From Thermothielavioides terrestris NRRL 8126 (taxonomy: Eukaryota; Ascomycota; Sordariomycetes; Sordariales; Chaetomiaceae): DNA of 64,000 bases. This document shows positions 18,662 through 58,382 of this stretch, piece after piece. Below the pieces are notes generated by a model that was not told the origin of the DNA, ran no database searches, and saw nothing but the letters and a program-made list of their open reading frames with translations. Location: the NCBI RefSeq assembly GCF_000226115.1, contig NC_016459.1:2589501-2653500 (forward strand), in the 5' to 3' direction. Numbering within the stretch: the stretch's first letter is position 1; the number at the start of each line of letters is the position of its first letter. A program made the position numbers and the translations under genes.

Positions 18662-18708
18662 CTTCTACTTCCCTTTCGAATTTGTATATAGCTCCTATAT
18701 ACGAATTT
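18662..18708 (-). promoter_or_regulatory. Internal hairpin plus purine tract in element C
   Basis: Arms GAATTTGTATATAG and CTATATACGAATTT (18,678-18,708) form a hairpin. On the minus strand it is followed by CGAAAGGGAAGTAGAAG. It resembles the terminal 3' polypurine structure of the same element but lies about 2.6 kb upstream of it, just before the Ulp1-like module. Confidence 0.6.
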
Positions 18709-23174: not shown

Positions 23175-23216
23175 ATACTCGAGGACTATATAGTTAGAGT
23201 TACTATAATAGTAGCA
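23175..23216 (-). pseudogene. Gag zinc-knuckle relic of element C
   Basis: The CX2CX4HX4C spacing is recognisable: the first Cys codon is still TGC, and the second Cys, the His and the last Cys codons are TAT. In copy D the second Cys is preserved instead, so the two copies together support an original CCHC motif. Confidence 0.6.
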
Positions 23217-25335: not shown

Positions 25336-25832
25336 TGAAATAGTATAAAACCTCTATACCAACCTACCCTACTATACCTAGGATTAGGTATACGAAATAG
25401 CTCCTAAAGGAATATAGTGTACCTCTAGACGAATAAAGATAGTGTATATCGAGTAGTAGAAAGGATGTCTCCTAAAGGGAAGATATATAGCTTAGGTATA
25501 TCTAGTAGGATATAGTAGAAAGATAAAAGACAATAAGAATGTGGTCAAAGCTCAATAGCTCAAATGCCTATTGTCTAGATAGAGGTAGAACAACGAAAGG
25601 AGAGGCTCAACAGCCTTCCTAGAAGAAGGAGGACTACCAACATAGTGTCAACGAACGTGTATTGACAACTGCTTGATATCTTGCTTAATAATAAAGAAGA
25701 TGGGCTTAGCCTACTTAAATATATGTGATCAGAGGGCTAGACCCCCTAACAACGAATGCAACGCTCTGAGACAAACAGAAAAGCAGAAAAACTAGGTCCC
25801 CCTATATCTAGGTAGCCTATTACCCTAATCCA
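25336..25832 (-). repeat. 5' LTR of element C (497 bp)
   Basis: Direct copy of 15,528-16,024. It ends CCA on the plus strand (TGG on the element strand), followed by CTAT, which matches the four bases before 15,528. Its last 200 bases retain more CpA and TpG than the 3' LTR. Confidence 0.9.
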
Positions 25833-37854: not shown

Positions 37855-38341
37855 TGAATTAGGGTAATAGACTACTTAGATATAGGGACTTAGTTTTTCT
37901 GTCCATCTTAGTACGTTGCATTTGTTGCTAAGGGGTCTAGCCCTCTGTTTATATATATTTAAGTAGGCTAAGCCTATCTTCTTCGTTATTAAGTAAGACA
38001 TTAAGTAGTTGTTAATATATATTCGTTGACGCTACGTTAGTGGTTTTTCTTTTTCTAGAAGGGCTGCTAAGCCTCTCCTTTTGTTATTCTACCTTTGTCT
38101 AAACGATAGGTATTTGAGCTACTAAGCTCTAACCGTATTCTTATTGTCTTTTATCTTTCTATTGTATCCTACTAGATATACCTAAGTTATATATCTTTCT
38201 TTTGGGAGACATCCTTCTTACTACTTAATACGCACTATCTTTATCTGTCTAGAGGGACATTATATTCCTTTAGAAGCTATCTTATACGCCTAGTCCTAGG
38301 TGTAGTAGGGTAGGTTAGTATAGAGGTTTTACACTATTTCA
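37855..38341 (+). repeat. 5' LTR of element D (487 bp)
   Basis: Begins TGAATTAGGG and ends ATTTCA. It equals 57,896-58,382 in length and is an inverted relative of the 497-bp LTRs of C, with small indels. Confidence 0.9.
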
Positions 38342-38999
38342 AATAGGGGCTTAATTAGGGAGGAGCTTAGCTCTATATTTAAATAGGATAGTATAGACTA
38401 CGAAGTCTTCCGAGATCGTAGAACTATATAATGCTATATTGATAGCTATACGACAACGATATAGCTAACCTATTGAAGCTCCAATATACTGATATCGGTA
38501 TCTCTAGGAGGCGTAGAAACCTGTTGAGGCGTATATAGTCTAGGGGTCCGTTGAGACCTTGTTCTAGGAGACCTTCCTTTACCTAGACGGCGTAGGGTAT
38601 CGAAAAGATATTCTATTATCTCTAATACTTTAAAGACCTATTGAAGCTTCGTTATTATTAACGTAGTAGTTATAAAACGTTAGCCTAATCGAAAGACGAT
38701 AGTTCTATCCTCCTAAGTAGAGACAAAGGTAGAATTTTTATTGATTATTATTTTCTTTTCTAGTCTAATTGAACTAGTTATAAAAGCGGTTAAATGTAGT
38801 AGCTATTTATAAGCTTCTAGGCTTAGAACTATACCTTTATAATACTTAGCTCCTTCTAATAGTATATCTAGTACTATTTTATATTAGATACAAGGTCTTA
38901 GTATAGACGTTTGCTTTTCTTTTTAAGAGCTATACTTTTACTGCTATTATATTAGTTAGGTTTAGTATATTAATTGCTAAGGGTATCTAAGTAATCTAT

Positions 39000-40640
39000 A
39001 AGGAACCTATAGTTATTCTTCGAGGTATTTAGACTATATATTCTAAAGGAACTTAGCTTTTTAAGAGGTTTTTTTCCTTTGGATAGACGTCGAAGGAGTC
39101 GATATTCCTATAGAAGTATATATATTAGTCTTTTTATAGTCTATCGATATAGTCGTTGCCTTTCTTAAAGACAATAGTTAAACGCCTAATAACTAAGCTC
39201 TAGCGATATATATATACATTGTCTATAGAAGCTTTAGAAATCTTATCGACCTCTATAATACTATTAATCTTAATACTAACTTCTAAGAAAGAGTCTAAAG
39301 ACATATTTGTCTTATAGCCTTTCTAAGGTATACTAAGCGAAGAAGACCTAGCTAAAGCAGTGTAGATACCTCTTTCGTCTTCGCTAGATACTTCTACTCT
39401 ACCTATCTATATAGAGGTACCTATAGTAATATCTTCTAGTCTCTCCGAAGTTGAAGCTTTAAAGAAGATAACTAAGTACGTTTTTGCTACTATACTTAGT
39501 ACGACCTTTCTAACTCTAGTAAAGGCTAGCCTTTAGGGCTACTTCTCTAGTTAGAATACTATACGATAGATCGAGATCTTTAAAGAGATATATAAGGCTT
39601 ATTAGGTTACTAATGACAAGACCTATATATATCTATTTAAGCTTTAGTATAATACTATGATTTAGCCTATTATCTATTATTAGGAGAAAAAGGATTAGGA
39701 GACCTAGGTAGCCTTTAAGGCTAAGTTCCTAAAGCGTTAGAAGGGCAACGATTTTAAATAATATAGTAACGGAGGTTACCTTTGTACTCTAATTAAAGGG
39801 AGATACTAGCTAGTTAGCAAGGTTATCTATAACTACTTTAAGTTGATTGACTATATATATATTGTCGCCTCTACTAAAGTTTATAAAGAGCTATAGTATA
39901 TAATCGTTCTAACTATATAGTATACGTTTGATTAGTAGATCTAGGTAGCGTTTAAGGACTACTAGTATACCTTAAAGAAGGACGATAAGGACTTTATCTA
40001 TACTACGAAGTAGGTAGACTTCCTTAAGTTCGTTTAGAATACTCTTTAGAAGAGTCTTAATATAAGAGACCTCTTTCTTAAGATCTATAAGTGTAAGATC
40101 GATCTATAGAAGTACTACTCGCCTTTGGCTACATCTGCTATTAAGACGACTCCTAAACTATAGAAGTAGGAAGAGGAGGAGCTAAAGAAAGCTTTTATAC
40201 CTATACTCAATGATATCGACGATTTAGCTAATTAGCTCTAGCGTCTATATATTTAGAAGTAGAAGATCGCTAAGCAGTTTAAATAGAAGATCGAGGCCCT
40301 CTATTTATATAGAATCGATCCTACTTCTAACGAGATTAAGGTTCTCTAAACGTATTTCTAATAGCGGAGCTACTTATAGGAGAGACACGTTAGCTTTGTT
40401 ATTAGCTTATATATTAATAGTCGTCCTTTTAGCTATAGTAGACCTATAAGCTTTGGCTATTACTACTATTGTAGTAACTTTAACTATATAGTCCTTAAAT
40501 ATATAAAAGCTATAAAAGCTATAGCTATAGGTCTAATATATTGTAAAGGTATAGACTACTGCCTTAGCGATAGGAGTAAGAAGGGCTATATACTAGCTAA
40601 GACGATTACCTTTACAAAGGCAGATATTAACAATGTATAA
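39000..40640 (+). pseudogene. Gag relic of element D with zinc knuckle
   Basis: Plus-strand trace with FKAKFLKRQKGNDF-like and IEIFKEIYKAY segments, then a CX2CX4HX4C spacing at 40,461-40,502. There only the second Cys (TGT) survives and the other three ligand codons are TAC or TAT. Copy C preserves the first Cys, so the motif is supported by both copies. Stops are mainly RIP-type. Confidence 0.6.
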
Positions 40641-42699
40641 AAGGTCGATAAGATTAGCTAGCTTATTCTTATATATATAGCCTATTGCCTACAATATAAT
40701 AGCTACCTTATATACTAAGCGTACTATCGTAAGTATAAATGTTTAAATAGTCGCTTATTTAAGCTAGATATATCCCTAATGCTAAATAAGTACTATTTCT
40801 AGTAGCCTAAGCTATATTAGGAGCCTACAATTGTCTAGATAACGATCAATTGTCTTATATACAAAGGGGAGCCTAAGCTTATTTCCACCTTCTATTATAT
40901 AGCGTTTAATTAGTTGTCGTTTTATATAGTTCTATTAGAGGGAGGTCGTATCTGAATTTAGAAGGTTGTTCTATAGCCTACGCTAAAGGCTAACGAATTC
41001 CGTCGACTACCTTTTCCTCTCTTTGACTAGACTAAGGGGGAAGCTAAAGAGGAAGTAGACGAAGAAGTAGAGACTATACTTTAAGGTATACCGCCTACTA
41101 AGCGTTGGTTCGCTAAGGACGAAAGGGAAGATGACTTCTAGATAGGTGATATTCCTATACCTCTAGTAGAGCCTCCTTGTATAACTATCCTTAAGAACCT
41201 AGCTATAGCAAATCGTATAAAGAAAAAGGAGCTATAGTCTAAGCTGCCTACGCCAAAGGTTACTATATTACCTTTGTATATAAAGGATATAATCTATATT
41301 ATAATAAAGACGAAGATTAGTTTAACCTTTAATAACTTAGTCTATATTTCACCTAAGTATAAGGACGCTCTAATTATATATCTATAGGGCATTTCCACTA
41401 ATATCGAGGTTATCGACTATAAAGGGTCTAGTGTTCCTAAGCCTAATGGACTAGCTACTATACTAAAAGATATAGGGATCTATATATAGGCTCTATATAC
41501 TAATATAAATATATTTAATAGTCTATACTCTAGTTAGGCTAAGATGGTTCCAACGATCTTCAAAGTCACTAAGGACAATGTATAGGGCATCTATATAAAG
41601 AGCCTCTAGGAGCGTTAGATTTATAAAGGTCTATCTAGAGATGTTGACGACTATATCTATATTCTACTTTAGAAGTCTGTCTCAACGCTTTTAATCTTAT
41701 AGTATATAGAACTTAGCGTAATAACAAGAGTATAGTCGCTTCCTACTTTATATATCTAGTTCGAAAAAGGTTATTATAATAAATATCTTACCTTAATCGA
41801 CTCTAGTTTAGAGTATAACTATATTTCGATAAACGTTGTTAAAAAGTATATATTACTATACTAGCCTACTAAGGTCGTTTCAAAGGGCCTTTATAGCTTA
41901 GTACTATTCTTTAGAGAGACCTAGGTTACTCTTTATCTAAGTAGAGTTAGTATTAACCTTTATTTCTTTGTAACTAAGGATACTACTAGTAGGTATAAAG
42001 CAATTCTTAGTATACTATTCGTTAAGGATACTGCTCTAACCTTCGACTACTGTAATAGCAACCTAATTACTATTAATCTACTTATAGAAGGAAAGATAGT
42101 CTAAGCGTATATCGTCTCTAAGAAGATTGCCTAGTAGAATTGCTTACTATCTTTAGTATAACTAACTATCTAGGAGTAATTCTAGGGATTAACGAAGAGT
42201 CTCGAAAGAATCTTTAACTAGGTAGAGATAGAGGAAGGCAAAACTACTTTTAGTTTCCTCGACAATAATATAAGTAAAGCAATTTTTCATTTTATATTAT
42301 AGAAGTCCTATATATTGCTCTTTAATACTCTTTTTCATATTGTATATTTTTATTCTTTATCTTCTTCGTCTAGATGAACAAAGATTGAATTATTGTCCTA
42401 TTTAAAAGGGAAGAGGGGGACCCTAGTCGGAAACCCCTTTTCTAGCTAGAGGCTAAGGCGGGGATTCGAATATAAGGTTAGATACACCTTAAAGACGTTT
42501 ATACTTTAGAGGAATATTGTAAACAAGGTTCGACTAGTCGATTTAGCACTATTAGATAGCTCTATACTAGAAGGAGACCTATTATAGTAAAAGAAGTAGC
42601 TTATAAAGGCTAAGGCAAAGATATAGTTTAAAAAGGAATAGGACAATCTTATAGTCCCCTGTTTCTTAGATCTTAAGCTAGGCTTAAGGTTTACCGAGA

Positions 42700-43500
42700 A
42701 ACGTCTTTAAACAATGTTTACTACTATAGATAAATTCCTTAATAAGCTAGAAAAGGAGATGTTTATAAAGATTTTACGAAACTAGGAAGCTACGTTTATA
42801 TAGGATTTCACTAAGTATAAGTATATCTATAAGGATATTGTCCTACCCTAATATATTAAGACTATCCTATATAAGGCCTAGTAGAGTAAGTTTATTCCAA
42901 TTTCGAAGCTGCTAATATAGAAGGTTATTGATTTATTTAAAGAGAGGTAGATATATAAGATTATTAAATATAGCTATACGAGCTATTGTAATAACTAGTT
43001 CTTTATTCTTAAGAAGGACAGTGGATTATAGCTCATTAATGATATTTAAAAGGCTAATACTATAACGATCTATAACGCTTTTGTCCCGCCTACTATAGAA
43101 GAATTTAGTAAGGACTTTAGTAGCTATAAGCTAATATCTCTCTTAGATCTCTTCTCTAGTTATAACTAAGTCAATCTCAATAAGTAAAGCTACGATTTAA
43201 CAACCTTTTCAACGCTAATCGATCTCTTCTATATATATATACTATCGATAAGGGGTATAAATTCCATTGCTTAGTTCTAGCGAGCTATAACAATAATCTT
43301 TAGTAACTTTATCCTAGATATCTATTAAGTCTATCTAGACGATATTATAGTAAAAGGTCCTTAATCTAATTATAATAGCCGTCTAGACAGAGGGGGACGT
43401 TATAAATTTATTATCGAATATCTTAAGAATATTAATATAGTATTACTAAATATAGAGCTAGTAGGTACAACTATCGCTATAGTAAAGTCGAAGTGAATAT
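42700..43500 (+). pseudogene. Reverse transcriptase relic of element D
   Basis: The trace includes LSIRGINSIA and VYLDDIIVKGP with the catalytic YLDD codons intact (43,332-43,343). It lies about 5.0 kb from the 5' LTR, as in copy C. Confidence 0.8.
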
Positions 43501-43859
43501 AGCTAAAAGCGGTCCTACTTAGTTATCTTTATATATCTAATAGGCGTCTTCTTAAAGAAGTAAAGGTAATTAAGATAAAGGAGTAGAAGACCTATTTTAA
43601 TATTAAAGAGGTATATACCTTCGTTAAAATAGTTAGATACTACTAGATCTAGATTAAGGGCTTTATAATTATTATAATTCCTCTTTATACTCTAATAAAG
43701 AAGGATACTAAATAGACTTAGGGACCTACTAAGCAAAAGACGATAGATAAGCTAAAGGAAAAAATCACTATTGCTCTAGTCTTTATAACGCTTGTCTATA
43801 GTAATCTATAATACAGTATAATCTTCCTAGTTTACAACGCTAGTATCCTCGGCTAGGGA

Positions 43860-45300
43860 AGTGTACTTAAGTAGGTTGGTCCTAATAGTAAAAGACACCT
43901 ATATAGGTTCAAGAGCAATATCTAGTTAGAGGTAGAGAAGTAGTATAATACTATAAAGAGGAAGCTAAGGGGGCTACTCTTCCTTCTAAAGCGTTTTCGC
44001 TACTACCTTTTTAGTATACATTTTACTATAGAGACTAATACTCTAGTTCTAATCTATTAGCTTAATAGTACTATAAACGATGTTCTAAATGCTCTTATAA
44101 TATACTAGATTGCCTAGATCTACCTATTCGACTTCGAAGTTAAGTATATTCTAGGTCCTAAGAACGTTATAGCTAATACGTTGTCCTATAAGCCGCCTAG
44201 GCCCTTTAACTATATAGAGAAGGAGTTAGAAGAGGATATCGACAACTAGGTCAACGCCTAAATCTTTGTCAACTATATAGGCGAAGAGACTTTGTATCTA
44301 AAGGGGAAACTGGAACCTGTCCGCCTTTAGGATAATTACTCTTAGCGTTCCTAGGATATCGCCTACTTCCTATCGACGATAGAAGCTCCGCCTAGCTATA
44401 GTCCATACTAGAAGCGACGTTAGCTTAAAAGGGAAGTATTAAAATATTTTGTCGAAGATTATTACCTTTTCCTCTAAAGTACAAATTATATATAGTGTTA
44501 TAAATACGTTGTTAATACCTCTAAGGAGAGGCGTTTAATCTTCAACTAGGGTTACAATGAGGTTAGCTATTATAGAAGGGAGTTAATATACTAATAAGTA
44601 ACGAACTACTACTACTAGTATAGTATATATAAAGATATAGTAAACTAGATTTAGGCTTATACTCTATATTAAGTGTATAATGCCTAGAGGTTTAAGGAAG
44701 TAGTAGGTTGGTAGCGTCTCCGCCTTTTCCTTTTGCTAAATAGCACTTTGATATCCAATATATACTATCTAGCTATAGGGAAAAGAAGTATTTCCTCGTC
44801 GAGGCTTATAACAATCTTATAAGATACGTCGAAGCTAAGATCCTACTAAACAAGTCCTCTAAGTCCGTTAAGTCCTTTATCTTATAATATATCCTTTGTC
44901 GCTAGGGTTACCCTATAGTTGTAGTTGTCGACAAAGGCTTTAAGTTCAAAGGCGAAGTTAAGGAAATCCTTTATAAACTAGGTATTAAGAGAGTTATTAT
45001 CTTACTATATAATTCCTATATAAACGGTGTAAATAAGGCTAGCTACATCTTGATTGCTACCTTGCTTATAAAGATGACTAATAGTATAGGAAAGAGGTAG
45101 AGGGAGCTCTTTCTATATATTTTATATATAGATCGTACAACTGTTAGAGGCTTTTATAAAATATCTCCCTTCTTTCTTACCTACAATTATAAGCCTATTA
45201 GTCTAGTCGAGTTTAATATTTCTATATAGTAAATTCTTGCCTAGGACTCTATCTATACCTAGTTAAAGAAAGAAAATTCTACAAAGGTCTATACGAAGCT
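43860..45300 (+). pseudogene. RNase H C-terminus and integrase relic of element D
   Basis: Segments FDFEVKYILGPKNVIANTLS (about 44,130-44,190) are typical of the RNase H end of Gypsy pol. YVEAKILLNKSSKSVKSF, VVVVDKGFKF and IIILLYNSYINGV (about 44,830-45,050) fit an integrase core with its Asp and the N-S-x-x-N-G motif. This part is missing from copy C. Confidence 0.7.
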
Positions 45301-46199
45301 TATTGCCCTCTATGCCTATATCCTCTAGGAAGCAAAGTATAATTATAAGATTACCATTGAACAGGTTGCTATAGCCTACGAAAAGATAGCTAAACGCTAT
45401 AATAAGGCCTATAAACGTAAATTTCACCCTAAAAATACGGTTATATCTATTAGTAATCTCGTCTTTGTCTATAACAATATATACTAGCTAGATATAAGCT
45501 CAGTTCAAAAGTTGGAATACTACTAGTTTAGCCTATTTTATATTTAGATAATCAAAGATTAGGATATTTACTTTCTAGAGACTTTAGACAGTATACCTAT
45601 TTAGACGCTATATCCTCCGAACTATATAAAGAAATTCTTTAAGCTAGATAACGTCTAGCTAGAAGTAGATAGACTAACTCTATTCTATCGCAAAGAGGAG
45701 CACTATAACAGTAAGTACTACAACGAGGTTAGCGACGAGGGCTATAGCGATAGAGAGTAAGATTCTATAAATATATATTACTCGACACTCACTAGCGATA
45801 GTAAAGGGGAATATAGTATTGCTAATAGCACTAGCTTCAACTAGGTAGAAGGGGACTACGCCTATATCTTTATTAGCCTAGGTAGCTATACCAATTACTT
45901 AAATAGGTTTCTCTATAATAACGTCGTAGTTCTAGGTCGTAATAAGGTCTTTTATATAAGCGATTATAATAACGGGTTACTAAGAGAGGATAATATAGAG
46001 GACGCTATAATTATAGTTGAGGAGGAGGTCCTTAAAAAAGAAACCCCTAGTTATATCGTAGCGCTTTAGGCTAGCTAGACTCGCTCGACTATAAAGGGGG
46101 TAAGGAAGGAGCAACCTTATTAGGAGCTTATTGTCGAAGTCCCTTATAGAAAACTACCTAGTTTTTAATACTAGCCCTCTAGACGTATAGGGATATACG

Positions 46200-47620
46200 T
46201 TCTAGAAAGGGGGGAAGGCGTAAAAGCTATCGCCTCTAATAGTTTTACTAGCGTTTAGCTATATTTCCTTCCTAATACCTATTGTTATATTAGCCTCTTG
46301 CTCGCTAATAATATTTCCATTAGTTATATCTTACTTAGTCTTTGTCTATCTATTATCTTTCGCTTATTTTTAGCCTTTAGGACCTTATTCTTTTTTCGTT
46401 GGTACCTAAGTTTTCCTCCTAGGGGGTAACCCTACTCTTAGGGGCCTTATAGTCATTTATACCTTTTTCTTTTTACTTCTACCCTCTAGATAGATAGTTT
46501 CTATTATATAGGACTAAGTTTCTTAGAACTAAAGTCAAAGCTAAGAAAAATCTACGATTAAGGTATATAGTCTTTTAATCTACTATCTATAGGCTAAGCT
46601 CCTAGACTATATCCTATCCCTTGCTTATCCTTGTCTATTGTCTCTATCCCTTAGTAGCGTAAGCTCTTATAGTTGACCTAGTACTATACTATCTGCTCTT
46701 TAATAGTATCCTCTAATAAGATAAACTACTTTTAGCCTACTTCTTCTAAATATAGCTTCAACCTAGGATTATTCTTTAGATTATATAGGAGATAGCCCTA
46801 TAAGATCAAGTCCTAAGCTAGGTACTTCTGATTATTCCTATAGATATAAGTCTAGGTATATTCTTTCTCTAACTAGATATAGTTAATATACTTATTAATA
46901 AAGAGAGAAGTAAGAGAAGTATAGCTATTAAAGGGCTAGATTATATAGATATCTCTATCTTCGTTAAAAGGAGTTGTTGAACGTTAGTACAATAGTTTAT
47001 AGCTTTAGTAAAGAACTTTGTTGCTATAGGAGTATTAGTCTTCCTCTACCTAGAGGGCGAGTATAAAAGGGAAGTGTAGTACTTACTTATAGCCCTATAC
47101 TTAGATTAAGAGAGCTAAAGCTTAGTTTAGGTGTATAGCGAGATAGTGTATCCAACGTCTAAGCGGTCTACTATTGTAGTGCTCTATATATACTAGACAA
47201 AGGACTAAAGTATTATAGTGCTATTCAATTATATTAACTAGCCTATTATCGATATAAACCGATCGCTATATTCTACGCTAATCTTGCTAGTTGCTTAGTA
47301 GGACCTATTAGATATATAACAACTTAACGTTTAGTTGGAAGATCTTAATTATATTATAGATAGCCTTATATTTAACTAAGATTATAGTATATTCGTTAGT
47401 ATAGCGCTTATCTTTTAGTATTGGTAGATCCTTTATTTTATTTTAAACTACCTAAACGTACTTCTAAGCTATAAAAATGTTCATCTTTAGCATTAGCGAA
47501 AGATCGATCTAGCGGTTTATAATCCTATATAACAATAGCCTTTAGTCGTCTACTTTATTAGTAATTTCCTATAAGACGTTGTAGGTACACTAGTTGTTCA
47601 ATATCTTGGTTTTAGGTTGC
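46200..47620. other. Unexplained interior of element D between integrase and Ulp1 module
   Basis: About 1.4 kb with no recognised domain, largely also present in copy C (about 18,710-19,680). In C the plus strand, antisense to the element, has a fairly clean trace (for example YTTILVEYKAIYNIIKIYR near 18,940-18,985). An oppositely oriented gene is therefore possible but unproven. Confidence 0.35.
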
Positions 47621-47667
47621 GAATTTGTATATAGGAACTATATACGAATTCGAAAGGGAAGTAGAAG
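47621..47667 (+). promoter_or_regulatory. Internal hairpin plus purine tract in element D
   Basis: GAATTTGTATATAG (47,621-47,634) pairs with CTATATACGAATTC (47,638-47,651) and is followed by CGAAAGGGAAGTAGAAG. The same structure is at 18,662-18,708 in copy C. It resembles the terminal hairpin and polypurine tract of this family. Confidence 0.6.
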
Positions 47668-48051
47668 ACTCGACTACTAAGAACCCAATCTACTTAGAGA
47701 GACGAAGGCACTAGAATAAGGTAGCAAGAAGGTTAGAGGAAGGAAATAGTTCTAGGATAGCAAGGAGAAGAGGAAGGCCTTAAGAATTTAGGAGGCGAAC
47801 GCTCTTTTCTAGCTTATCTCTAGCCAATTAGTAGGCGCTATAGGCCTTATCTATTTTCTTTCGCCTAGATTAGGAAAGAGCTAAGTAGCCCTCCTACCTT
47901 TAAAGGCTTGCCTACCCTTTTTCTTGATCCTCCTACTAGCTCTTTTACGATTAACTATTTTTTTCGCCTCATCTACTACGCTTTAGATTTTCTTATAATC
48001 GCTTCAATCGGTTTAGATCTTTCTACTTAGAGAGCGACTTTTCTATTAAAC

Positions 48052-48311
48052 TGTTACGGACCAGGCTATACCCGGGCTAGGTATATAGGGCTACGCCTAG
48101 GATCTATAGCGGTCCTATGACGGGCCTGCCACGGGCCTGAGGCGGACCCGCCTCGCGTCTAGAATAATATCGACCCGAGCCCCCTATATACGAGCCTCTG
48201 AAAACTCTGTACGCGAGAACCGTAGCCTATACTTCTCCTTTTCTCTCCTTAAGGTAGTTGAATAGAACATTGTACGCTTATCTGTAGACGCTATAAGGCC
48301 AGTACGTTATA
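48052..48311 (+). repeat. 5' LTR of element A (260 bp)
   Basis: Begins TGTTACGGACC and ends TTATA, the last TA probably being a mutated CA. By my reading it differs from the 3' LTR at roughly 18 positions, all transitions. The first 120 bases are GC-rich. Confidence 0.92.
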
Positions 48312-48324
48312 GTTCAACTACCTT
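48251..48324 (+). promoter_or_regulatory. Putative self-priming signal: R-region 5' end and primer-binding site
   Basis: AAGGTAGTTGAA (48,251-48,262) inside the LTR is the exact reverse complement of TTCAACTACCTT (48,313-48,324), which begins one base after the LTR. In Tf1/sushi elements the 5' end of the transcript folds back on a site placed like this and primes reverse transcription. The second copy at 60.4 kb has the same pairing, with one RIP change in the site. Confidence 0.7.
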
Positions 48325-48479
48325 TAGGCAGATAGAGCAGTTATTGCTTCTAGGCGTAGACGAGAGTAGTATATCGGGCGTTTCGACGCTAGTACCGAGC
48401 GGACTAGACGCTACTATAAATAACCTAGGCGTCTTGTAGAATCTAGACCTAGATTAGGTCCGTGAACACTTCTAAGTTT

Positions 48480-49580
48480 TGTAGAAAACAATCGTATAGT
48501 AGAACGTAACTATCGAAGAACTCTATATAGCCTAGATCGCTATAGCTTAGACTATGAACGTCCCTACAATGGCCTACGCCCTAGCTCCAACGATTAACGC
48601 TATAGCTCTAGTAGCTCCTAGGATATAGTAGAAGCGTCTCCCTATAGGACAACCCTTCGATAATAAGAAGGAACTCTTTACTATCTAGAGGGCTACGATA
48701 GTGTACGTCCTAATAGCGGACTAGAACTTTATTAGAGGCCTCTACAACTAATAGGTATTTATTTAGAGGAACTTTAGCTAAGGAGTTTAAACTAAGGTCG
48801 TAGCCTTCTATAAGTCGAGAAAGCTTCGCTATAATTATAACTTAGAAGCGTTCCTTAAGTATTTTATAACTATTTATATAGACCCTTATAAGTAGGTTAT
48901 AGCCTTAATAGAGCTAGATATACTCCGCTAAAAAGATAACGAGCTATTCTCCTCCTTTTTTATTCGCTTTAAGGCGAAGCTATTAAAGGCTAAAGGACTT
49001 AATTAAAGTAACGAGGTACAACTTATTAGATTATAACAATACCTTTCTCTAAAGTTGAAGTATATTATAGTAGGATAGAAGGTTCTATAGAACGACTATA
49101 TTATAGTTGTTATAAAGTACTATAAGATCGCTATTGACCTAGAGGCCCTCCGCCTAGAGGAACGATATTAGTAGTCCTAGGGTAAGCGACCTAGGCCCAA
49201 CGTAGATATAGAGAAGGATATAGACAAAGATATACCGATGACTAGGATCAATATAGCCTATATTGCCCTTGCCTAAGGGGGAGCTAATAGGGGCTATAGA
49301 GGAAAGTAGTAGTAGAACGGAGAAAAGCGAAGTACAAATGTGCTATAGGCAAAGTAGGTAAGCAACGAAGTGTATATAGTACGTTAATAGGCTAGAGCTT
49401 ATATCCGTTGTAGGCGCTAGGGTCACTTTATAGCCGCCTATCCCTTCGCCCTAGCTAAGAGGCTAGCTCCTTAGGTCGATATTAATAAGCTAGAGGCTAA
49501 GGAATAGGTAAAGGAGGACTCCTTCTCTAAGGAGGAGGAGGGAAAAGAGTAGCCCCTATACAAAGTCTTATATAGGGGTT
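48480..49580 (+). pseudogene. Gag relic of element A
   Basis: The trace includes FDNKKELFTI (about 48,657-48,690), ATIVYVLIAD and a terminal knuckle at 49,400-49,441 reading Y-I-R-C-R-R-stop-G-H-F-I-A-A-Y: the second Cys and the His survive, and the other two ligands are TAT. An acidic tail follows. Confidence 0.75.
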
Positions 49581-50199
49581 GAAAGGACCTAGCTACTTAT
49601 AGAACGAGTTTATAGAGATTAGAGAGAGAATAGATAAGCTACCCTTTCTAATCTCTATTTTCTTAAACTCCTTTGGTTTTATAAATATATAAGTAAATAG
49701 TAGGTACTAGAGCTATAGAGCTATTAGCGAAAGAGTATATTAGTAGTTAGAGATTGAGTAAATAAGTTTATTAACTCCTTGTACCTTAGGTGTTATAGTC
49801 AAGAGGGTGTAAATTATAAAGAAAATTATATATATTGCCTAGGTTGTAATAGATATCGATAGGTAGATCAGTGTTGCTATATTCTATATAGTCCTAGGAC
49901 TAGTCTATAATATTATTTTAGGGCTCCCCTAGATAAACTACTATAGGATTATACTAGACCTAGCTAACAGGGTCTTTACTATTAATTCGTAAAGTGGCCT
50001 ATAGGTATACGAATGCTCCTTATAGTGGAAAGAAACTAATACTACTCTAATTATAGGCGTAGTGTTTATAGGCTTAGCTTATAGGATATAAAAGAAGAAG
50101 TCTAAAGGAGCCTAAGATATATTCCTCATTACTAGTATTTGTAAGATAACTACTATACTAGGGGTAGCCGTCTTCTAGCTCGACGCTAACCTAGACCCG

Positions 50200-51420
50200 A
50201 AGATCGTATTGCTAAAGGAGCTACAAGACTTCGTCGACCTCTTCGACAAAGAAAAGGCGAACGGCCTACCTCCCTATTGGGGGGAGGCCAACTATTATAT
50301 CCGTCTTAAGACGGGCTTGGACAAGAAACCTTTTAAGCTTCTATAGGGACCTTTGTATAATATACCAAGGGACTACCTTTTGGAGATTTAGAAGTAGGTC
50401 ATAGACCTAATAGATAAGGGATAGATCTAGGTAAGCTCTTTATTAGTAGCTATCCTAGTCCTCTTTATAAAGAAGCTAGAAGGGGGATAGAGGTTCTATA
50501 TAGATTATTAGGCCTTGAATAAGATTACTAAGTAGGATTGGTATCTACTCCCTTTAATTAAAGAGACTCTCTAGTCCTTAGCTAGAGCTAAATAGTTTAT
50601 AAAGCTAGACGTTAGAGCTACCTTCTATTGTATTTGGATAGCTAAGGGGGATAAGTACCTTATAGCGTTTTATATAAGGTTTAGGCTATTTAAGTAGCTA
50701 GTCTATCCCTTTGGGCTTGTAAATGCTTTCGTAATGTTCTAGAGATATATCAACAACGCCCTTAGCCTAACGCTAAGGGACTATATAACGATATACTTTA
50801 ACAATGTCTTAGTATACTTGAGTAGGAGCTAGAAGGACTATATAAAGAAGGTATATAAGGTCCTTTGGAGGCTAAGGGATATAGGCCTCAACCTAGACCT
50901 TAAGAAGTGTATATTTACAGTGAAGGAAATTAAGTACTTAGAGTATATTATAGAGGTAGGAGTCTATATCTACCTTGACCCTAAGAAGATCAAGGCTATC
51001 TATAAGTAGGAGGTACCCTATAGAGTCTAAGGAGTATAGAGCTTCTTTAGGTTTACTAACTTCTATTACAACTTTATCTTTAACTTCTTCGAGAAAATAG
51101 CCCTATTGACATGTCTTACCTATAAAAATGTCCTATTTCGCTAGGGCAAGGAGGAATAAGAAGCCTTCGATATATTTAAGGCTACGTTTATATTGGAGCC
51201 GATCCTCGCCTAGTAGGATCCTAAGAGGGAGATAATCGTAGAAGTAGACTATTTTAGTATAGTACTTAGTAGGTATTTGTCTTAGTAGGGGGAGGACGAG
51301 GTCCTTTACCCTATAGCCTACTACTCTATAAAACTAAGCTCTACTAAACGCAACTATACTATCTATAACAAAGAGCTATTGGCTATTATCTTATACCTTA
51401 AGGCCTAGTAGGCGGAGCTT
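50200..51420 (+). pseudogene. Reverse transcriptase/RNase H relic of element A
   Basis: Segments in order are DFVDLFDKEKANGLPP, YNIPRDYLLEI, RFYIDY then ALNKITK, KLDVRATFY, FGLVNAFVMF, and the catalytic box read as YFNNVLVY (about 50,794-50,820), where YLDD is expected and both Asp codons were mutated to Asn. RNase H follows with IAYYSIKLSSTKRNYTIYNK and ELLAII. Confidence 0.88.
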
Positions 51421-51979
51421 CGAAGTATAGTAGCCCCCTTTACTATTCTAATCGACTATAAGAATCTTAAGTACTTTACTTAGCTACGTCCGATTAGCGA
51501 ACGATAAGCTAGATAAGCGAAGACACTCTCTTTGTTCAACTTCGAGCTAAAGTACTAGCTAGGATCCTAGGCTTTATACTCTAATATACTCTCCTAGCGT
51601 AAGTAGGACGAGCCTAAAGACAACTAGCGTATTGCCTAGCTATTTCCCTCGATCAAGGTATACTAGACTAACGTATAAAAGGAGGCTAGGCTATCTATAG
51701 GAGAAACGCTCTTTGAGAACAAGTAGCTCGCTACCCTATAGAACGAGGGTATTGCTAAAGACGAGCACTATGTTTACTAGCTCTAAGCCGTCTACGATAG
51801 AGCTCGGAAGTTTCCTAAGAAGGCGAATATAGCGTAGACCTAGATCGTAGACTACTCTTTTAATACATAAGGCGCACTCTAGTTCTATAGCCATCTCTAG
51901 CTCCCTATATAAGAGCCCTTAACTACTACGATTATCTAGTAGATCTATAACTTAGCTATATTAAGATACCTAGGGCGTA

Positions 51980-53210
51980 ATAGGCTATTTAAAATACTTT
52001 AGAGAGATTATTACTAGGACCTTATATCGTCCAATGTAAAGCGGTTCATTAGGAACTATAATTAGTGTCGTTAGAGTAAAATCTTCCGATAGCTACGTTA
52101 AGGGCTTTTATAGCCTTTGCTTATCTTTGATCGCTTTTGGAAACAGATCTCTATTGACTTTATAATCGACCTCTCTATAAGAGACGAAGGAATGCCTAGC
52201 TATCTTATAGTGATTATCGACCGTCTCTTTAAGTATATATAGCTCAAGGCAATATACTCAATAGGAGTAGAAGAGTATACCCTTCGATTCTATAATATAT
52301 AGTAGCGTTTCTATAGGTTTTTAACCTAAATTATAACCGATTATAGGTTAGATTAGCTAAGTAGGTTCTAGACTACGTTGTATAAGGTGGTAGGGGTAGA
52401 GTAGCTTCTATCGACTTCTTACTATCCCTAGACGAATAGAAGGATAGAGCAAGTTAACTAAGAGGTATAGGCAATCCTCTAGATCTTCGTCTCCTTTATA
52501 TAGTACGACTAGCCTAAATATCTCTTGGCCTACTAGTTTATACTTAACAATAGGGACTTGTCTATAACTAGAGTGAGCTTGAACTACCTTCTTTATAGGT
52601 TCGATATAAGCCTTATATAGCTTATTACGATCTTAATAGCGTTTACGACATCCCTAGAAGGTCGCGTTGCTAGGTTCCTTTATCACCTAAAGGAGGGGAT
52701 AGAGTAGACCTAAGTAGCTATTATATATACGTAGTAGCGGCAGTAGACGAATATAAACCACTCTTGCCGCCTAGCTAAGAGGTTCTAGGTAGGGGACGAG
52801 GTATAGCTCTCTCTATATAATATAAAGACGAACTGCCCTAGTAAAAAGCTCGACTAGCTAAATGCTAAATATAAGGTAGTTATAGTATTGACCTTGCTAA
52901 TAGTAATACTTAATATACTAAGTGGTCTATACCCAACCTTCTATATTGACTTAGTTAAGTAAGCGGCTTTCGACCTATTCCCTTTGTAGAAAGTTATAGA
53001 TAAGAGACTAGACCCTATATAGGTTATATCGGAGGAGGGTGTTCTCTAATAGGAATATAGGGTAAAAGCGATCCTTAAAGCTTAGAACGTAAAAGGGAAA
53101 GAGAACAACCGTAATATATACGTCAAGTAGATAGATTATAACAAACTAATATAGGAGCCTTTAGAGAACTTCCTAGAGACTACTATACTCAATGAGTTTA
53201 AATAGGAGTA
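51980..53210 (+). pseudogene. Integrase and chromodomain relic of element A
   Basis: Near 52,110-52,220 the trace reads PLLIFDRFWKQISIDFIIDL and SYLIVIIDRLFK, the first catalytic Asp region of Gypsy integrase. Near 53,130-53,205 it ends in VK-stop-IDYNKLI-stop-EPLENF, the pattern of a chromodomain (VKW-x-GY then WEPLENF), which makes the element a chromovirus. Confidence 0.78.
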
Positions 53211-55340
53211 GAGAGACGTATAATACAATGATAGGCTAGTGTCGAACTAGAGGAGGAAGAGGAAACGTTGTATTCACTTATAGACTACCTTATAAAAACT
53301 AGCTACTTAGATAAATACAACTATATAGGTATAGGAAAACTATAATATACCTAAGTCTAGTCATCCTCCTAAACCTAGATAGAATAGAACTATATATGAA
53401 AAAACAATAGGATATACTAGTAGCGTTATTCATTTAGGGTCTATAATAGGACCTACGTTAGTAATCTCTTCTTTATCTTCGAACAAGTATATAGATAGAG
53501 CAGATATACGAAGGGGTAGAGTAGTAACGTAAAGGGTCTAAGGCGAAGGCTATATATACGCTTGATAGGTATAGAGTACGTCCTTTACTAGGGAGGAAGA
53601 GCGTCGACTATAGTATAGGTTGTAGATGGGGGAACGTATATAGAGAGAGTAGCGAAGGCAGGACCTCCGAGGGGTATAGATAGGCAAAGGAGTAGTAAGT
53701 ACGATAATATAGTCTATAAAGTGTAAATTCGTCTCTAGGACGGTTGCCTAAGACTATACTATAGTGTAAATAGCCTTCGCGATACGCCGATTCTCTCGCT
53801 AAGAGGAATTGAGATATTACACTATATACTCAACTAGACGGCTATAATGCTATATAGCGAGGTTGTCCTAAGGAGCCTAGTATAGAACTAGGGCTCTTCG
53901 CTAACCTAGGGTCGAAGAAGATAAAGAGGGGGCTAGAAGCGCATTGGGTATAAAGGCAGAGTATATCGGAGACCGATGTTATAGGGCTATACTAATTACG
54001 TTATAGAAGCTATATATAAAAGTGCTAAATTATAGCGTTAAAATAGTACAATGGGCTAGCTTAGTCTTAGTCTTCTTCTAAGCGAGCTTAGCGACAGCTT
54101 AGTTGTCGATATAAAACTTGACTAAGCGTTTTAGACTAGTATATAGAGAGGCGTTCGTCGCCTAAAGTGCTAGATCCTAATAGCACTTAGTATAGGTTTT
54201 AGTATATTCTAAGCAGCTTTCTTCCTAGCCCTAAATACAATCTACTAAGTTACTATAAAGAAGCTATTTAATACAATTAAGGTAGATGTCTCCCTCCTCC
54301 TTTAGAAGGGCGTTATCTTTATCGTTAGAATCTCCTTCTATAATATAGCTACTAATAGTATAACGAAAGGAGTTACTATAGTTGTTATAGTTCTATCTAG
54401 GACGTTATTAGCTTCTAGTCTAAGGCTAGAGTAGGCTTGATATAGGGTAATATACATTGTAATCTTAGTTGTCGTCCTCTCTAGGACAATGTCCTTCGCT
54501 ACTATCTCTAAGAAAAGCGACTACTATCGACATTATAGTAAATAAGTCTTAGGAATATATTGGAATTACAAGAGAAATAAGAAGCTACTATAGAGGGCAA
54601 AGTAAATAGATAGAACGTATAAGAGCTATATATATAGAGGAGGCGGCTAGGGGACCAAATAAATATAAAGAGGAAGGATTATAGGATAAGTCGGGTATAA
54701 AATAAAAATATAGCGAATACAGTTAGTAAAGTAGTTAGACATATAATAACGACGACGGGGCTAATACAATAGGAGTATAGACGTTGGACAACTATATAGC
54801 TTATATAAGAAGAGGCCAACAACATATAAGGTGAATACTCAACAGAGTAAATAGGAGGCAAGAAAAAAAAAAAAATACAAAGGGCGGAAGATATATATAA
54901 GATAGAAATGCAATAAACGAGGAATATATGTAAAGTGGGATAAAGAGAGAAATGTCGATATATAAGTAGGAGGAAGATAAAGTTGTAGGAGTAGAGAGAG
55001 GGCGCGTACTAGAAATAAGAAGAGAACGTAGGGAGCGAGTTTATATAAGGGGAGGGGTTTTATTGGCAATAGGTAGAGGGTCTGTTATACCTGATTAGCG
55101 GGTACACCTTATACGATACGGCTACTACGGAGGAGAGCGTAGGGCAAGGAAGGGGCTAATCAGCGTCCTATAAAAGCGAGGTAAATAAACAACCTACGGC
55201 TAGGCAGTAGGATTATAGGCAGTAGCGCTAAGCCGCCTAAATACCGGGTTAGACACCGGCGTTCGCTATAATCGACCCTACGCTACGCTAGACCCGCGCC
55301 TAGCGCTACGCTACGTATACCCTAAACTAGCTCCCTATCC
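53211..55340. other. Additional 2.1 kb between chromodomain and polypurine tract of element A
   Basis: Traces on the plus strand have many RIP-type stops in two overlapping frames, and two short open frames lie on the minus strand (54,679-55,069). No domain is recognised. Most chromoviruses end soon after the chromodomain, so this may be an extra gene or a long 3' untranslated region. Confidence 0.4.
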
Positions 55341-55355
55341 GGGAGGGGGGGGGGG
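55341..55355 (+). promoter_or_regulatory. Polypurine tract of element A
   Basis: GGGAGGGGGGGGGGG lies two bases before the 3' LTR, as expected for the plus-strand primer of an LTR retrotransposon. Confidence 0.8.
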
Positions 55356-55357
55356 TA

Positions 55358-55617
55358 TATTATGGACCAGGCTATACCCGGGCTAGGTATATAGGGCTAC
55401 GCCTAGGATCTATAGCGGTCCTATGACGGGCCTACCACGGGCCTGAGGCGGACCTGCCTCGCGCCTAGAATAATATCGACCTAAGCCCCCTATATGTAAG
55501 CCCCTGAAAACTCTACGCGCGAGAACCGTAGCCTATACTTCTCCTTTTCTCTCCTTAAGGTAGTTGAATAGAACATCGTACGCTTATCTGCAGACGCTAT
55601 AAGGCTAGCACGTTATA
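55358..55617 (+). repeat. 3' LTR of element A (260 bp)
   Basis: Same length as the 5' LTR. Its first bases are TATTATGG where the 5' LTR has TGTTACGG, two RIP-type transitions. It is followed by TAAAC, the target duplication. Confidence 0.92.
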
Positions 55618-55739
55618 TAAACTAAATTTTTATACGCTATTGCAAGTATTACTATAGGTTGTTGTAGGATTCTTAATTTTATAGGGCCTATATAATTTCA
55701 GGTCGATATAACCGTTGCTCTAGGATAGAAATAGCTGTT

Positions 55740-56540
55740 TAGAGAGCTTAAGTTTTATATACTATTAGGTTTGTAGAGGCCTATCGAAGATAGCGATTAA
55801 ATGAGGCATTATACCTCCTTTATAGGGCAAGAGCTAGACTTAAAGATACTAAGTTACCCTAGGGAGACTAGTCTTAAGCTTTTTCTATTTCTATAGACCC
55901 TAAAGAAGTACCTATAAAATATAATTAATTGGCGACCTAACTAGATTTAGAGCCTTTAGCTTAGTACAAACCCTAAGATTATAAGCTATCTGTTCCTAAG
56001 CTAGCTAGAAGGAAGGTATATAATAGATCAGTTTTTTAAAATCAATTTTATAGATATAGGTATTTCACTCTTTAACGTAGAAGGTATACTATTTACTAAG
56101 GAATAGCTAAAGGACTAGATAATCTTAGACGTTATATAGTTTTTCTTTTATCTTTATAAAGACTATCTCTAGTTCTACCTATAGCTTGTCTTAGATACTA
56201 GTCTTATACTAAAGGAGTTCTATTAGTTTGACTAGAAGGTCATTATTAACTATTGTTATTTCTAAGTCTTCCTTTACTTCGTTGATAGAAAGTATTAGGC
56301 TATTATAATCTTTAACTAAGTTGTAGGCTAGCTTTACTACTTCGACTCTATACTTAAGAGTATAGAGATATACACTAACATTTTATTAGAGGTCTAAATC
56401 ACCTTCTAGTCCGTCTATAGGTTCCTTTAGTTGTAGCTATATAAGGAGGTGATTGTCTACTATCCTTAGTAAAGTATAGGTTAGGAGTATAGATAGTTCG
56501 CTTTAGAGTTTATATAGGCTTTTCTTTAAGAGCTCTAGCC
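55740..56540 (+). pseudogene. Ulp1/C48-like cysteine peptidase domain in element D
   Basis: Plus-strand trace resumes after element A. The His-Trp motif is mutated to TAT-TAG (56,293-56,298) but is flanked by the same residues as in C (FVDRK before, A-I-I-I-F-N after). LYYFDS follows with the Asp intact, then stop-E-Y-R-stop-F-A-L-E-F at 56,482 onward, the RIP form of W-E-C-G-W-F-A-L-E-F, holding the expected catalytic Cys. The order His, Asp, Cys and the spacing fit C48 peptidases (Ulp1/SENP). In plants such domains occur in MULE and CACTA transposons; here the domain belongs to an LTR element. Confidence 0.7.
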
Positions 56541-57850
56541 CCGCCTTCTAGATAGACTAATATAATTTAAGATGCTTTAGCTTCGACTATATTAGGGAGA
56601 TAGTAAGAAGGTTATATAGCGATATATATTATACTTATAGTTAGGAGTTTATAAGAATACTCTTAGTACCTTTAAAGATTGCCTACTCTATACTAAAGGA
56701 ATCCTTTCGCTATAGTAGAACGAAGGTAAAATGTATAAGCTCCCTCTAGACCTATTGTCTTCGACCTAAAAACCTATATAGCTTATATTCTTAGAGTATA
56801 ACAAAGACGAGGTAATTAAAGTCCTCTAGAGCAACGATGTATTTACATCTAATAAACTAGATATTCCTAGGCTCAATAACTTATCTATATATATTTGCAA
56901 CTACTTTAGCAATATAGAACTTAGGATCTTAGCTATATACTTAGTAGCATTTAAATAAGCCTAGATCCTTGACTAGAGTAAGAAGAGACTAATCGCTATC
57001 GTATAGCTAATCCTTATACTCTAATCAAAGTAAAAGGTAGTGTACTAGGCGTACTACTATAGGATTATAGAGCTTCTATTGGATAGATAGCTAAATAGTA
57101 GGCTATCTTTATAAGACCCTATAGGCGACCTTAGACGACAGTTGTAAACTACGTTTTTAGTACCTAGGGCTATTCTACTACTCCGACTAGAGGACTAGAA
57201 TACTACTTTAGGACTATCGGCTATACTAGTGGAAGATCTTAACAATATATCGACCTAGGCGAACGTTGAGGCTAAGATTATAGAGATCGCTACGATATAG
57301 GCGACTATAACCTAAAGGCTCGTCGATGCCCCTATAGACAAGTTCGACTAAGAGCACCTCCTTAGCAATATATAGGTTAAAAAGCTCGGGGCCCTAGTAT
57401 AGACGGTGCTTAAGATAATAGTACTCGATCTCTACCTCTAAGAAGAGAAGACGTTTATCTATATACTTATAAGGAGACTAAATTATCTTAAGATGCTTTA
57501 CTCGCTAGTGTAGAAGCATTTGTAGGTATAAGGATCGCCTATATTATCTAGTTGTATATTACCCTTAGTATAGTATTGTAGTAAGTGCCTTTGTAAAGAG
57601 CTTACTAAGCCTAAGCGGCTACTTTGCTTACTACTATACAACCTATATAACTGTGCCTTCGCCTATAAGTACAAATATCTAGTATAGTAATAAGGATAGG
57701 ACGTGTATATTAAGGAGGTAGAGGAGTATAAAAGACGATATAATTAGCTACTATAGCTAGCTAGACCTTTGTAAGCTAAGCAAGCTACGTATAGAGAGTA
57801 GCTTAAGGAGTAGCGACGATAAGAGGTGTACACTAAGGAGCTTTTAAGGT
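56541..57850 (+). pseudogene. Cys-rich and coiled-coil tail downstream of the Ulp1-like domain (element D)
   Basis: The trace continues with a Cys-rich stretch (YCSKCLCKELTKPKRLLC near 57,570-57,630) and a Gln/Arg/Glu-rich helical segment (YREQLKEQRRQEVYTKELL near 57,790-57,845) just before the terminal hairpin. It could be the C-terminal half of the peptidase protein. Function unknown. Confidence 0.45.
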
Positions 57851-57854
57851 ACGA

Positions 57855-57894
57855 GCTTACCTATAGGAGTATATAGCAAGTTCAAAAGGGAAAT
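57855..57894 (+). promoter_or_regulatory. Terminal hairpin and polypurine tract of element D
   Basis: GCTTACCTATA and ATATAGCAAGT form a hairpin, followed by CAAAAGGGAAAT directly before the 3' LTR. It corresponds to 16,027-16,066 in copy C. Confidence 0.6.
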
Positions 57895-57895
57895 A

Positions 57896-58382
57896 TAAAT
57901 TAAGGTAATAGACTACCTAGATATAGGGACCTAGTTTTTCTATTCGTCTTAGTACATTGTATTCGTTGCTAGGGGGTCTAGCCCTCTAGTTATATATATT
58001 TAAGTGGGCTAAGCCTATCTTCTTTGTTATTAAGTAAGACATTAAGCAGTTGTCAATATATATTCGTTAACGCTACGTTGGTAGTTCTCCTTCTTCTAAG
58101 AGGGCTACTAAGCCTCTCCTTTTGTTGTTCTACCTCTATCTAGACGATAGGCATTTAAGCTACTGAGCTCTGACTATATTCTTATTGTCTTTTGTCTTTC
58201 TACTATATCCTACTAGACGTACCTAAGCTATATATCTTCCTTTTAGGAGATATCCTTCCTACTACTCGATACGTACTATCTTCATCCGTCTAGAGGGACA
58301 CTATATTCCTTTAGGAGCTATCTCGCGCACCTAGTCCTAGGTATAGTGGGGTAGGTTAGTGTAGAGGTTTTGCACCATTTCA
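57896..58382 (+). repeat. 3' LTR of element D (487 bp)
   Basis: Same length as 37,855-38,341. It starts TAAATTAAGG (mutated from TGGATTAGGG) and ends ATTTCA, followed by the ATAT duplication. Confidence 0.9.

What the first reader, a model, noticed from the sequence alone, without database searches (positions are those of the whole stretch)
55740..56540. A Ty3/Gypsy family carrying a Ulp1/C48-like cysteine peptidase downstream of integrase
In two independent copies (C and D) a trace with the C48 order of motifs lies between the integrase and the 3' LTR. Copy C keeps RHWAIVIFD; copy D has TAT-TAG in place of His-Trp but keeps LYYFDS; both show the RIP form of W-E-C-G followed by F-A-L-K/E-F. 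Ulp1-like peptidases are known from MULE and CACTA DNA transposons; I do not know of a described Gypsy lineage with one, though I cannot search. It could act on SUMO or a related modifier in the host silencing or integration machinery, or be a captured host gene.
Basis: partly seen in the sequence, partly recalled or inferred. Interest (0 to 1): 0.85.

Follow-up and report, generated by a model that had tools for sequence, protein, structure and literature searches.

The report
Retrotransposon carrying a SUMO-protease-like gene
A worn-out, many-copy fungal jumping gene of the retrovirus-like Ty3/Gypsy type carries, next to its normal genes, the remains of an enzyme gene that looks like a divergent SUMO-removing protease, a combination we did not find described.

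Summary
Both elements are LTR-bounded Ty3/Gypsy copies, heavily RIP-mutated. The same-strand frame before the 3' LTR has His-17-Asp-48-Cys with Gln six before Cys, as in host Ulp1. A single copy is not beyond chance, so the case rests on 31 aligned copies. Of the eight residues invariant in eight C48 proteins, seven still stand in at least one copy (Cys in one only); Gly in none. The pattern occurs once on both strands; a C48 score there beats 3000 of 3000 column shuffles by best observed residue, 2995 of 3000 by mean. The module belongs to the family: 29 of 30 copies are collinear on both sides; of 40 RT copies chosen without it, 27 have it at 4.1-4.7 kb and 8 more within 12 kb. No Pfam, PDB, protein-database or fold search found C48; hhalign placed it right at 7% probability. 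Simulated RIP shows a canonical Ulp1 would still be found, so this is a divergent C48-like ORF3, not a recent capture of host Ulp1. Copy C has lost its integrase. Inferred function: isopeptidase for SUMO or a relative. Ten literature searches listed no such Gypsy.

The parts
37855..58382 (+). Copy D: Ty3/Gypsy element, split by a nested element at 48054-55617
   Evidence: TG...CA ends, 487-bp LTRs, ATAT-rich flanks compatible with a target duplication; collinear with copy C
37855..38341 (+). Copy D 5' LTR
43104..44063 (+). Copy D reverse transcriptase (43104-43358) and RNase H (43728-44063) matches, read through
   Evidence: Pfam RVT_1 20.6 bits (below its cut-off of 29.6), RT_RNaseH 37.9 bits (above its cut-off)
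44531..45300 (+). Copy D integrase, approximate, placed by alignment to L045 (H2C2 finger about 44531-44687, then catalytic core)
   Evidence: Pfam Integrase_H2C2 in 4 of 5 other copies, rve core in 0 of 5; motifs read by eye
48054..55617 (+). Nested, different Gypsy element (258-bp LTRs) inserted in copy D
55618..57895 (+). Copy D ORF3 frame (read through), up to the 3' LTR; start codon not determined
   Evidence: frame; third-position excess of transversions downstream of the C48 part against C-like copies
56035..56577 (+). Copy D C48-like core
56293..56298 (+). Copy D His-Trp site, now TAT-TAG
56344..56346 (+). Copy D Asp site, GAC kept
56470..56493 (+). Copy D Gln site (now TAA) through Cys-Gly site (now TAT-AGA)
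57896..58382 (+). Copy D 3' LTR
15528..25832 (-). Copy C: same family, 497-bp LTRs, 4-bp target duplication ATAG (15524-15527 and 25833-25836); internal deletion at 19718/19721 removes the integrase
19713..20579 (-). Copy C reverse transcriptase and RNase H matches, read through
   Evidence: Pfam RVT_1 29.4 bits (cut-off 29.6), RT_RNaseH_2 29.8 bits (cut-off 29.8)
17335..17877 (-). Copy C C48-like core; His-Trp CAT-TGG 17619-17614, Asp site AAC 17568-17566, Gln CAA 17442-17440, Cys-Gly site TAT-AGA 17424-17419

Best explanation
The element is a large Ty3/Gypsy retrotransposon family (copy D about 13 kb without the nested element) with pol and, in the env position, a sense ORF3 whose N-terminal half is a divergent Ulp1/C48-type (clan CE) cysteine peptidase. 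Shown: LTR-bounded family, pol domains, constant ORF3 position, C48 catalytic geometry across copies. Suggested: a coding frame downstream. Inferred: ORF3 separate from pol; when intact it cleaved an isopeptide or processing bond of SUMO or another ubiquitin-like modifier, with His-Asp-Cys catalysis and Gln in the oxyanion hole. The likeliest gain is removal of SUMO from host silencing or DNA-repair factors, or from the element's own integration complex. All 31 aligned copies carry 53-68 stops in 598 ORF3 codons. A gag was not identified.
For: RT/RNase H/H2C2 Pfam matches; best PDB match a reverse transcriptase/RNase H, 1.7e-24, then Ty3 Gag-Pol, 5.6e-23. The geometry H-17-D-48-C, Q at -6, W after H occurs once in 3777 columns on two strands; tight-geometry shuffles give it in 21 (plus) and 4 (minus) of 2000 without W and in 0 of 2000 each with W. 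C48 matrix at that place: reached by 0 of 3000 shuffles by best observed residue, 5 of 3000 by mean. Standing states in 31 copies: H 19, W 11, D 27, S 30, P 3, Q 19, C 1, G 0; none of these eight columns shows a transversion. H, W, D, S, P, Q, C, G are the invariant columns of eight C48 proteins. hhalign put HW..DSL in register unprompted, E 0.005. Collinear in 29 of 30 copies; 35 of 40 RT copies have a listed module downstream, 27 of them at 4.1-4.7 kb. Transversions by codon position, D against C-like copies, downstream of the core: 13/7/23.
Against: No Pfam match in 20 or 22 copies, no PDB-sequence match, no protein-database match. Models at pLDDT 37 and 36 and no PDB fold match at E<=0.001 for the second. 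hhalign probability only 7%. Cys in 1 of 31 copies, Gly in none, and the Trp two before Cys never seen (stop in 31 of 31). The core shows no third-position excess (13/10/12; pol 18/8/45; Fisher p 0.007), so purifying selection on it is not shown; one D-like copy, L038, shows none downstream either (11/5/11). The mean score is reached by 5 of 3000 shuffles, and the reversed-window single-copy control beats the real window. The shuffles used a geometry fixed after seeing it, and shuffling columns breaks the overlap of neighbouring codons. D-to-C spacing varies among C48 proteins (42, 48, 49 in three host loci), so 48 is weak support by itself. No function was tested.
Confidence: 0.7

Rival explanations
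1. Clan CE peptidase, but used like the adenovirus or Polinton protease: it matures the element's own Gag or Pol proteins rather than removing SUMO.
For: Clan CE enzymes share the His/acid/Gln/Cys layout (recalled); the ORF is part of the element in 29 of 30 copies. Neither a gag nor an aspartic protease was identified in the read-through Pfam scans.
Against: Asp followed by Ser matches the Ulp1-type proteins held here; an acid Glu, as in adenain (recalled), is not seen (Asp 27, Asn 4 of 31).
Confidence: 0.15
2. Not a peptidase: an unrelated ORF3 (for example env-like or unknown) in which RIP, by making TAT, TAG and TAC common, mimics the motif.
For: No profile, database or fold match; single-copy control; no constraint seen on the core.
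Against: The multi-copy tests use residues that still stand in some copies, and column shuffles rarely or never reproduce them.
Confidence: 0.12
3. Recent capture of the host's Ulp1 gene by one element.
For: Same spacing as host Ulp1 L040 (17, 48, 6).
Against: After simulated RIP host Ulp1 keeps 37 bits and a second host C48 protein 22.4 bits in Pfam, while no scanned module copy scores. The module is in two subfamilies and 69 listed places.
Confidence: 0.02
4. A separate small insertion between pol and the 3' LTR rather than part of the family.
For: 5 of 40 RT copies had no listed module downstream, though module lists were capped at 40 scored of 83 and 102 candidates.
Against: Collinear 3' side in 30 of 30 and 5' side in 29 of 30 copies; 27 of 40 RT copies have it at one distance, 4.1-4.7 kb.
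Confidence: 0.01

Closest known systems
Ginger1 DNA transposons (PMC2836005; passages seen)
   Same: Gypsy-type integrase with a Ulp1 (or OTU) cysteine protease domain downstream in the same element
   Different: DNA transposons with terminal inverted repeats, classed as without RT; Ulp1 is fused to the transposase; reported in four animal species
NeSL and Utopia non-LTR retrotransposons (PMC4640811; passages seen)
   Same: Retroelements with a Ulp1-like cysteine protease domain
   Different: Non-LTR; the protease domain is N-terminal in the protein; nematodes
Bdelloid rotifer LTR retrotransposons with enzymatic ORF3 (PMC5408684; passages seen)
   Same: LTR elements with a non-envelope enzyme ORF downstream of pol
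   Different: Their enzymatic ORF3s are GDSL esterase/lipase or DEDDy exonuclease; 'Ulp', 'SUMO' and 'peptidase' do not occur in the main text
Cryptons with a C48 peptidase (PMC3212892; passages seen)
   Same: Mobile elements, including CryptonF and CryptonS of oomycetes, encoding a C48 peptidase
   Different: Tyrosine-recombinase DNA elements
Host Ulp1 of this genome (L040) and PDB 6dg4, 1euv
   Same: H-17-D; D-C 48 in L040, 49 in 1euv; Q-6-C
   Different: L040 scores 68.9 bits in Pfam; the module is outside Pfam reach

Membership tests
Ty3/Gypsy LTR retrotransposon | LTR pair with TG..CA ends and short target duplication | tested here: met
   Copies C and D, (the TG start of the 3' LTRs is itself RIP-mutated to TA); TSD clear in C (ATAG), ambiguous in D because the flank is an AT repeat
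Ty3/Gypsy LTR retrotransposon | RT, RNase H, then integrase, in that order | tested here: met
   RT and RNase H in 5 of 5, H2C2 finger in 4 of 5, integrase core (rve) in 0 of 5 by Pfam; best PDB matches RT/RNase H and Ty3 Gag-Pol
Ty3/Gypsy LTR retrotransposon | gag | tested here: inconclusive
   No Pfam match to a gag in the read-through 5' part of copies C and D
Peptidase family C48 (Ulp1) | His-Asp-Cys with Gln before Cys at C48 spacing | tested here: met
   H-17-D-48-C, Q-6; host Ulp1 has the same; the Cys itself stands in only 1 of 31 copies
Peptidase family C48 (Ulp1) | Invariant H, W, D, S, P, Q, C, G of eight C48 proteins | tested here: inconclusive
   7 of 8 seen in at least one of 31 copies; C in 1, P in 3, G in 0
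Peptidase family C48 (Ulp1) | Profile match to PF02902 above cut-off | tested here: not met
   0 of 20 and 0 of 22 copies; RIP alone costs 26 and 32 bits in two controls and abolishes a weak third match
Peptidase family C48 (Ulp1) | C48 fold | tested here: inconclusive
   Models too poor, pLDDT 37 and 36; no meaningful match
Peptidase family C48 (Ulp1) | Isopeptidase activity on SUMO or a relative | not testable with these tools
   no experiment
Ginger1 transposon | TIR-bounded DNA element without RT | tested here: not met
   LTRs and RT present

The most novel reading that the evidence does not exclude
A previously undescribed Ty3/Gypsy lineage in which an env-position ORF3 encodes a fast-evolving Ulp1-like isopeptidase that counters SUMO-dependent host silencing or repair. 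It would be the LTR-retroelement counterpart of Ginger1, which joins a Gypsy integrase to Ulp1, and might share its module.
Probability: 0.3. Interest if true: 0.82.

Novelty: new variant of a known kind. Interest (0 to 1): 0.62.

Why it matters
Ulp1-like proteases recur in DNA transposons (Ginger1, Cryptons, Mutator) and in non-LTR retrotransposons. An LTR/Gypsy family with one would extend that recurrence to the retrovirus-like class and suggest that acting on a ubiquitin-like pathway is a general need of mobile DNA. It would also give a natural comparison for how Ginger1 came to join a Gypsy integrase and Ulp1. In RIP-competent fungi it offers a way to ask whether SUMO matters for silencing or integration of retroelements.

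Tried and rejected
No C48 match by Pfam on single copies, on 20 or 22 copies, by PDB profile. No relatives of ORF3 in the 5.8-billion-protein set (20-copy alignment, 7994 candidates scored, one copy's core, 131 candidates). For pol only 3 relatives at E<=1e-10, 22-24% identity, among 7989 scored. A generous best-state alignment to host C48 ORFs was uninformative, because its scoring favours any long match. Two AlphaFold jobs failed in confidence; a Foldseek run on the second gave nothing. Whether ORF3 is fused to pol: the stretch between is variable and its frames gave no coding signal, so a separate ORF is inferred. The first alignment of pol rows (A2) held L051 in a wrong frame; it was dropped, and A3 has 5 of the 6 rows. 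RT copies without listed module: 5 of 40, not followed up. Considered and rejected: module as separate insertion; recent capture of host Ulp1. On re-checking I lowered the main confidence from 0.72 to 0.70, because the Trp two before Cys, which I had counted as a match, is a stop in 31 of 31 copies.

Full report
Setting. The window is C3:2589501-2653500 of a 36.9-Mb genome in 6 contigs. Size and contig number suggest the thermophilic saprotroph Thielavia (Thermothielavioides) terrestris; that is recall, no call names it. From about 11 kb on the window is AT-rich and RIP-mutated: from 12 kb on TpA/ApT is 1.6-2.0 against 0.7 in the first 8 kb, and (CpA+TpG)/(ApC+GpT) is 0.3-0.5 against 1.2-1.3.

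Two copies of one element. Copy C (15528-25832, minus) has 497-bp LTRs and an ATAG target duplication; copy D (37855-58382, plus) has 487-bp LTRs and is split by another Gypsy element at 48054-55617. Without it copy D is about 13 kb; copy C is 10.3 kb. LTR differences are 50 transitions and 0 transversions in C, and 62 and 1 in D, as RIP would give. Copy C lacks about 2.7 kb downstream of RNase H that copy D and 6 of 8 other fetched copies carry; the remaining two (L050, L052) have deletions of their own there. This stretch holds the integrase.

It is Ty3/Gypsy. Read through stop codons, copies C and D match RVT_1 and RNase H, around the cut-offs. In five other copies Pfam finds RNase H and RT in 5 of 5 and the integrase zinc finger in 4 of 5; the integrase core is found in none, which shows how RIP blinds Pfam. 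The profile's best solved structures are a reverse transcriptase/RNase H (1.7e-24) and Ty3 Gag-Pol (5.6e-23). A gag was not identified in the read-through stretch 5' of pol.

The module belongs to the family. Thirty copies found by similarity to copy C's module (copy C included; the best 30 of 40 scored out of 102 candidates) are followed by the same 3' stretch and LTR in 30 of 30. They are preceded by the family's own upstream sequence in 29 of 30, in L021 for only 344 bp; L014 has none. In the other direction, 40 RT copies were taken without regard to the module (40 scored of 83 candidates). 35 of 40 have a listed module downstream on the same strand within 16 kb: 27 at 4.1-4.7 kb and 8 at 5.8-12 kb, where a nested insertion (as in copy D) or a neighbour's module may be the reason. 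The other 5 had none in the capped lists. Two subfamilies exist, C-like and D-like.

The C48 signal. In an alignment of 31 copies (30 loci and D; L035 and L036 are identical), the columns at the claimed places hold: His 19/Tyr 12; Trp 11/stop 20; Asp 27/Asn 4; Ser 30/Phe 1; Pro eight before Cys in 3; Gln 19/stop 12; Cys 1/Tyr 30; Gly after Cys in 0 (Arg 30, Lys 1). None of these eight columns shows a transversion. The place two before Cys, Trp in some C48 proteins, is a stop in 31 of 31. Eight C48 proteins (host L039, L040, L042, L044, 6dg4, yeast Ulp1, SENP1, SENP2) have H, W, D, S, P, Q, C, G as their only invariant columns, so seven of eight still stand in at least one copy. The spacing is H-17-D-48-C with Q six before C. 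H-17-D is also that of L040, L042 and L044, whose D-C distances are 48, 42 and 49 (with the ORFs); yeast Ulp1 has 17 and 49, counted.

Is it more than chance? Counting only columns in which the ancestral codon still stands in some copy, a wide search (D 15-21 after H, C 35-64 after D, Q 5-7 before C) finds the pattern once in 3777 columns on both strands. Shuffled columns, tested only with the tight geometry (17; 46-50; 6), give it in 21 (plus) and 4 (minus) of 2000, and with Trp in 0 of 2000 each. A score matrix from 8-9 C48 sequences puts the same place first: best-observed-residue score 60.2, shuffles 41.0 +- 3.3, 0 of 3000 as high; mean score 6.8, shuffles -4.7 +- 2.7, 5 of 3000 as high. 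Reverse complement, reversed and complemented alignments give 50.6, 52.8 and 46.9, and -1.8, -5.6 and -6.0. Against this, a single-copy scan of the window gives copy C 7.9, the top score, but the reversed window reaches 8.6, and copy D's motif place is not among the top eight. Column shuffles also break the overlap of neighbouring codons. hhalign of the copies against the C48 alignment put HW..DSL in register unprompted, with E 0.005 but probability 7%.

What failed. Pfam found C48 in 0 of 20 and 0 of 22 copies; PDB sequences gave nothing; the protein collection gave nothing; two models had pLDDT 37 and 36, and the fold search on the second gave nothing at E<=0.001. To weigh this I damaged three host C48 genes by simulated RIP (90% of CpA/TpG; one version each scanned): Pfam C48 scores fell from 68.9 to 37, from 48.6 to 22.4, and from 18 to none. 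A canonical Ulp1 would thus still be seen; a divergent one need not be. The module is divergent, and a fresh capture of host Ulp1 is unlikely. Caveat: the module core carries 29 stops in 261 codons in copy C, more than simulated host Ulp1 (12 in 245), about as many as simulated L044 (30 in 280).

Selection. Transversions between D and the C-like copies by codon position: pol 18/8/45, ORF3 core 13/10/12, ORF3 downstream of the core 13/7/23. For four other D-like copies the downstream counts are 3/1/8, 4/1/8, 4/1/7 and, in L038, 11/5/11; their core counts are 10/6/8, 11/8/10, 12/8/10 and 11/5/4. So the frame downstream was probably coding, but the core shows no third-position excess (Fisher p 0.007 against pol; 0.11 against downstream). 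Relaxed constraint and rapid adaptive change both fit.

How it would work. Inferred: ORF3, in the env position and sense orientation, made a clan CE cysteine peptidase acting on SUMO or another ubiquitin-like protein. SUMO marks in silencing and DNA repair are the obvious targets, and Ginger1's authors suggested repair for theirs (passages). None of this is tested.

Known relatives. Ginger1 joins a Gypsy-type integrase and Ulp1 in a DNA transposon (PMC2836005, passages). NeSL and Utopia-1_TSP are non-LTR retrotransposons with an N-terminal Ulp1-like domain (PMC4640811, passages). Cryptons can carry C48 (PMC3212892, passages). Bdelloid LTR elements have other enzymes as ORF3 (PMC5408684, passages). 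In PMC7264820, PMC11963269 and PMC12440569 a word search found neither Ulp nor peptidase in the main text. Ten paper searches, of which two aimed at the organism, listed no Gypsy element with Ulp1/C48. I saw capped listings with titles and starts of abstracts; the library holds only open-licence papers, and Repbase was not searched.

Verdict. It is a new variant of a known kind: a Ty3/Gypsy element with a Ulp1-like ORF3.

Noticed in passing
L040 (C1:6053870-6057418) and L041 (C6:2166009-2169557): The host Ulp1 gene is present twice, 100% identical over the 3549 bp fetched, on two contigs, with an open frame: a very recent duplication or an assembly duplicate.
   Followed up: partly
L035 (C3:1893007-1897803) and L036 (C1:3389949-3394745): Two RIP-mutated element copies are 100% identical over 4797 bp in inverse orientation, so the stretch was duplicated after RIP (or in assembly).
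   Followed up: partly
window 48054-55617 and 60429-64000: A second, smaller Gypsy family (LTR about 258 bp, RT, RNase H, H2C2 finger) is nested in copy D; a related copy starts at 60429 and runs off the window.
   Followed up: partly
window 30260-37541: Another direct LTR-like pair, 30260-30593 and 37209-37541, about 90% identical.
   Followed up: no
window 11777-12208: Degenerate tandem repeat with spacings of 84 and 171 bp at the edge of the AT-rich block.
   Followed up: no
L044 (C1:3148270-3151563): An open 702-aa frame with a weak C48 match (18 bits, below cut-off) and a long low-complexity tail; a divergent C48-like host or mobile gene.
   Followed up: partly
window 45685-48000 and the same stretch in other copies: The stretch between integrase and ORF3 is more variable in sequence and length than pol or ORF3.
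   Followed up: no
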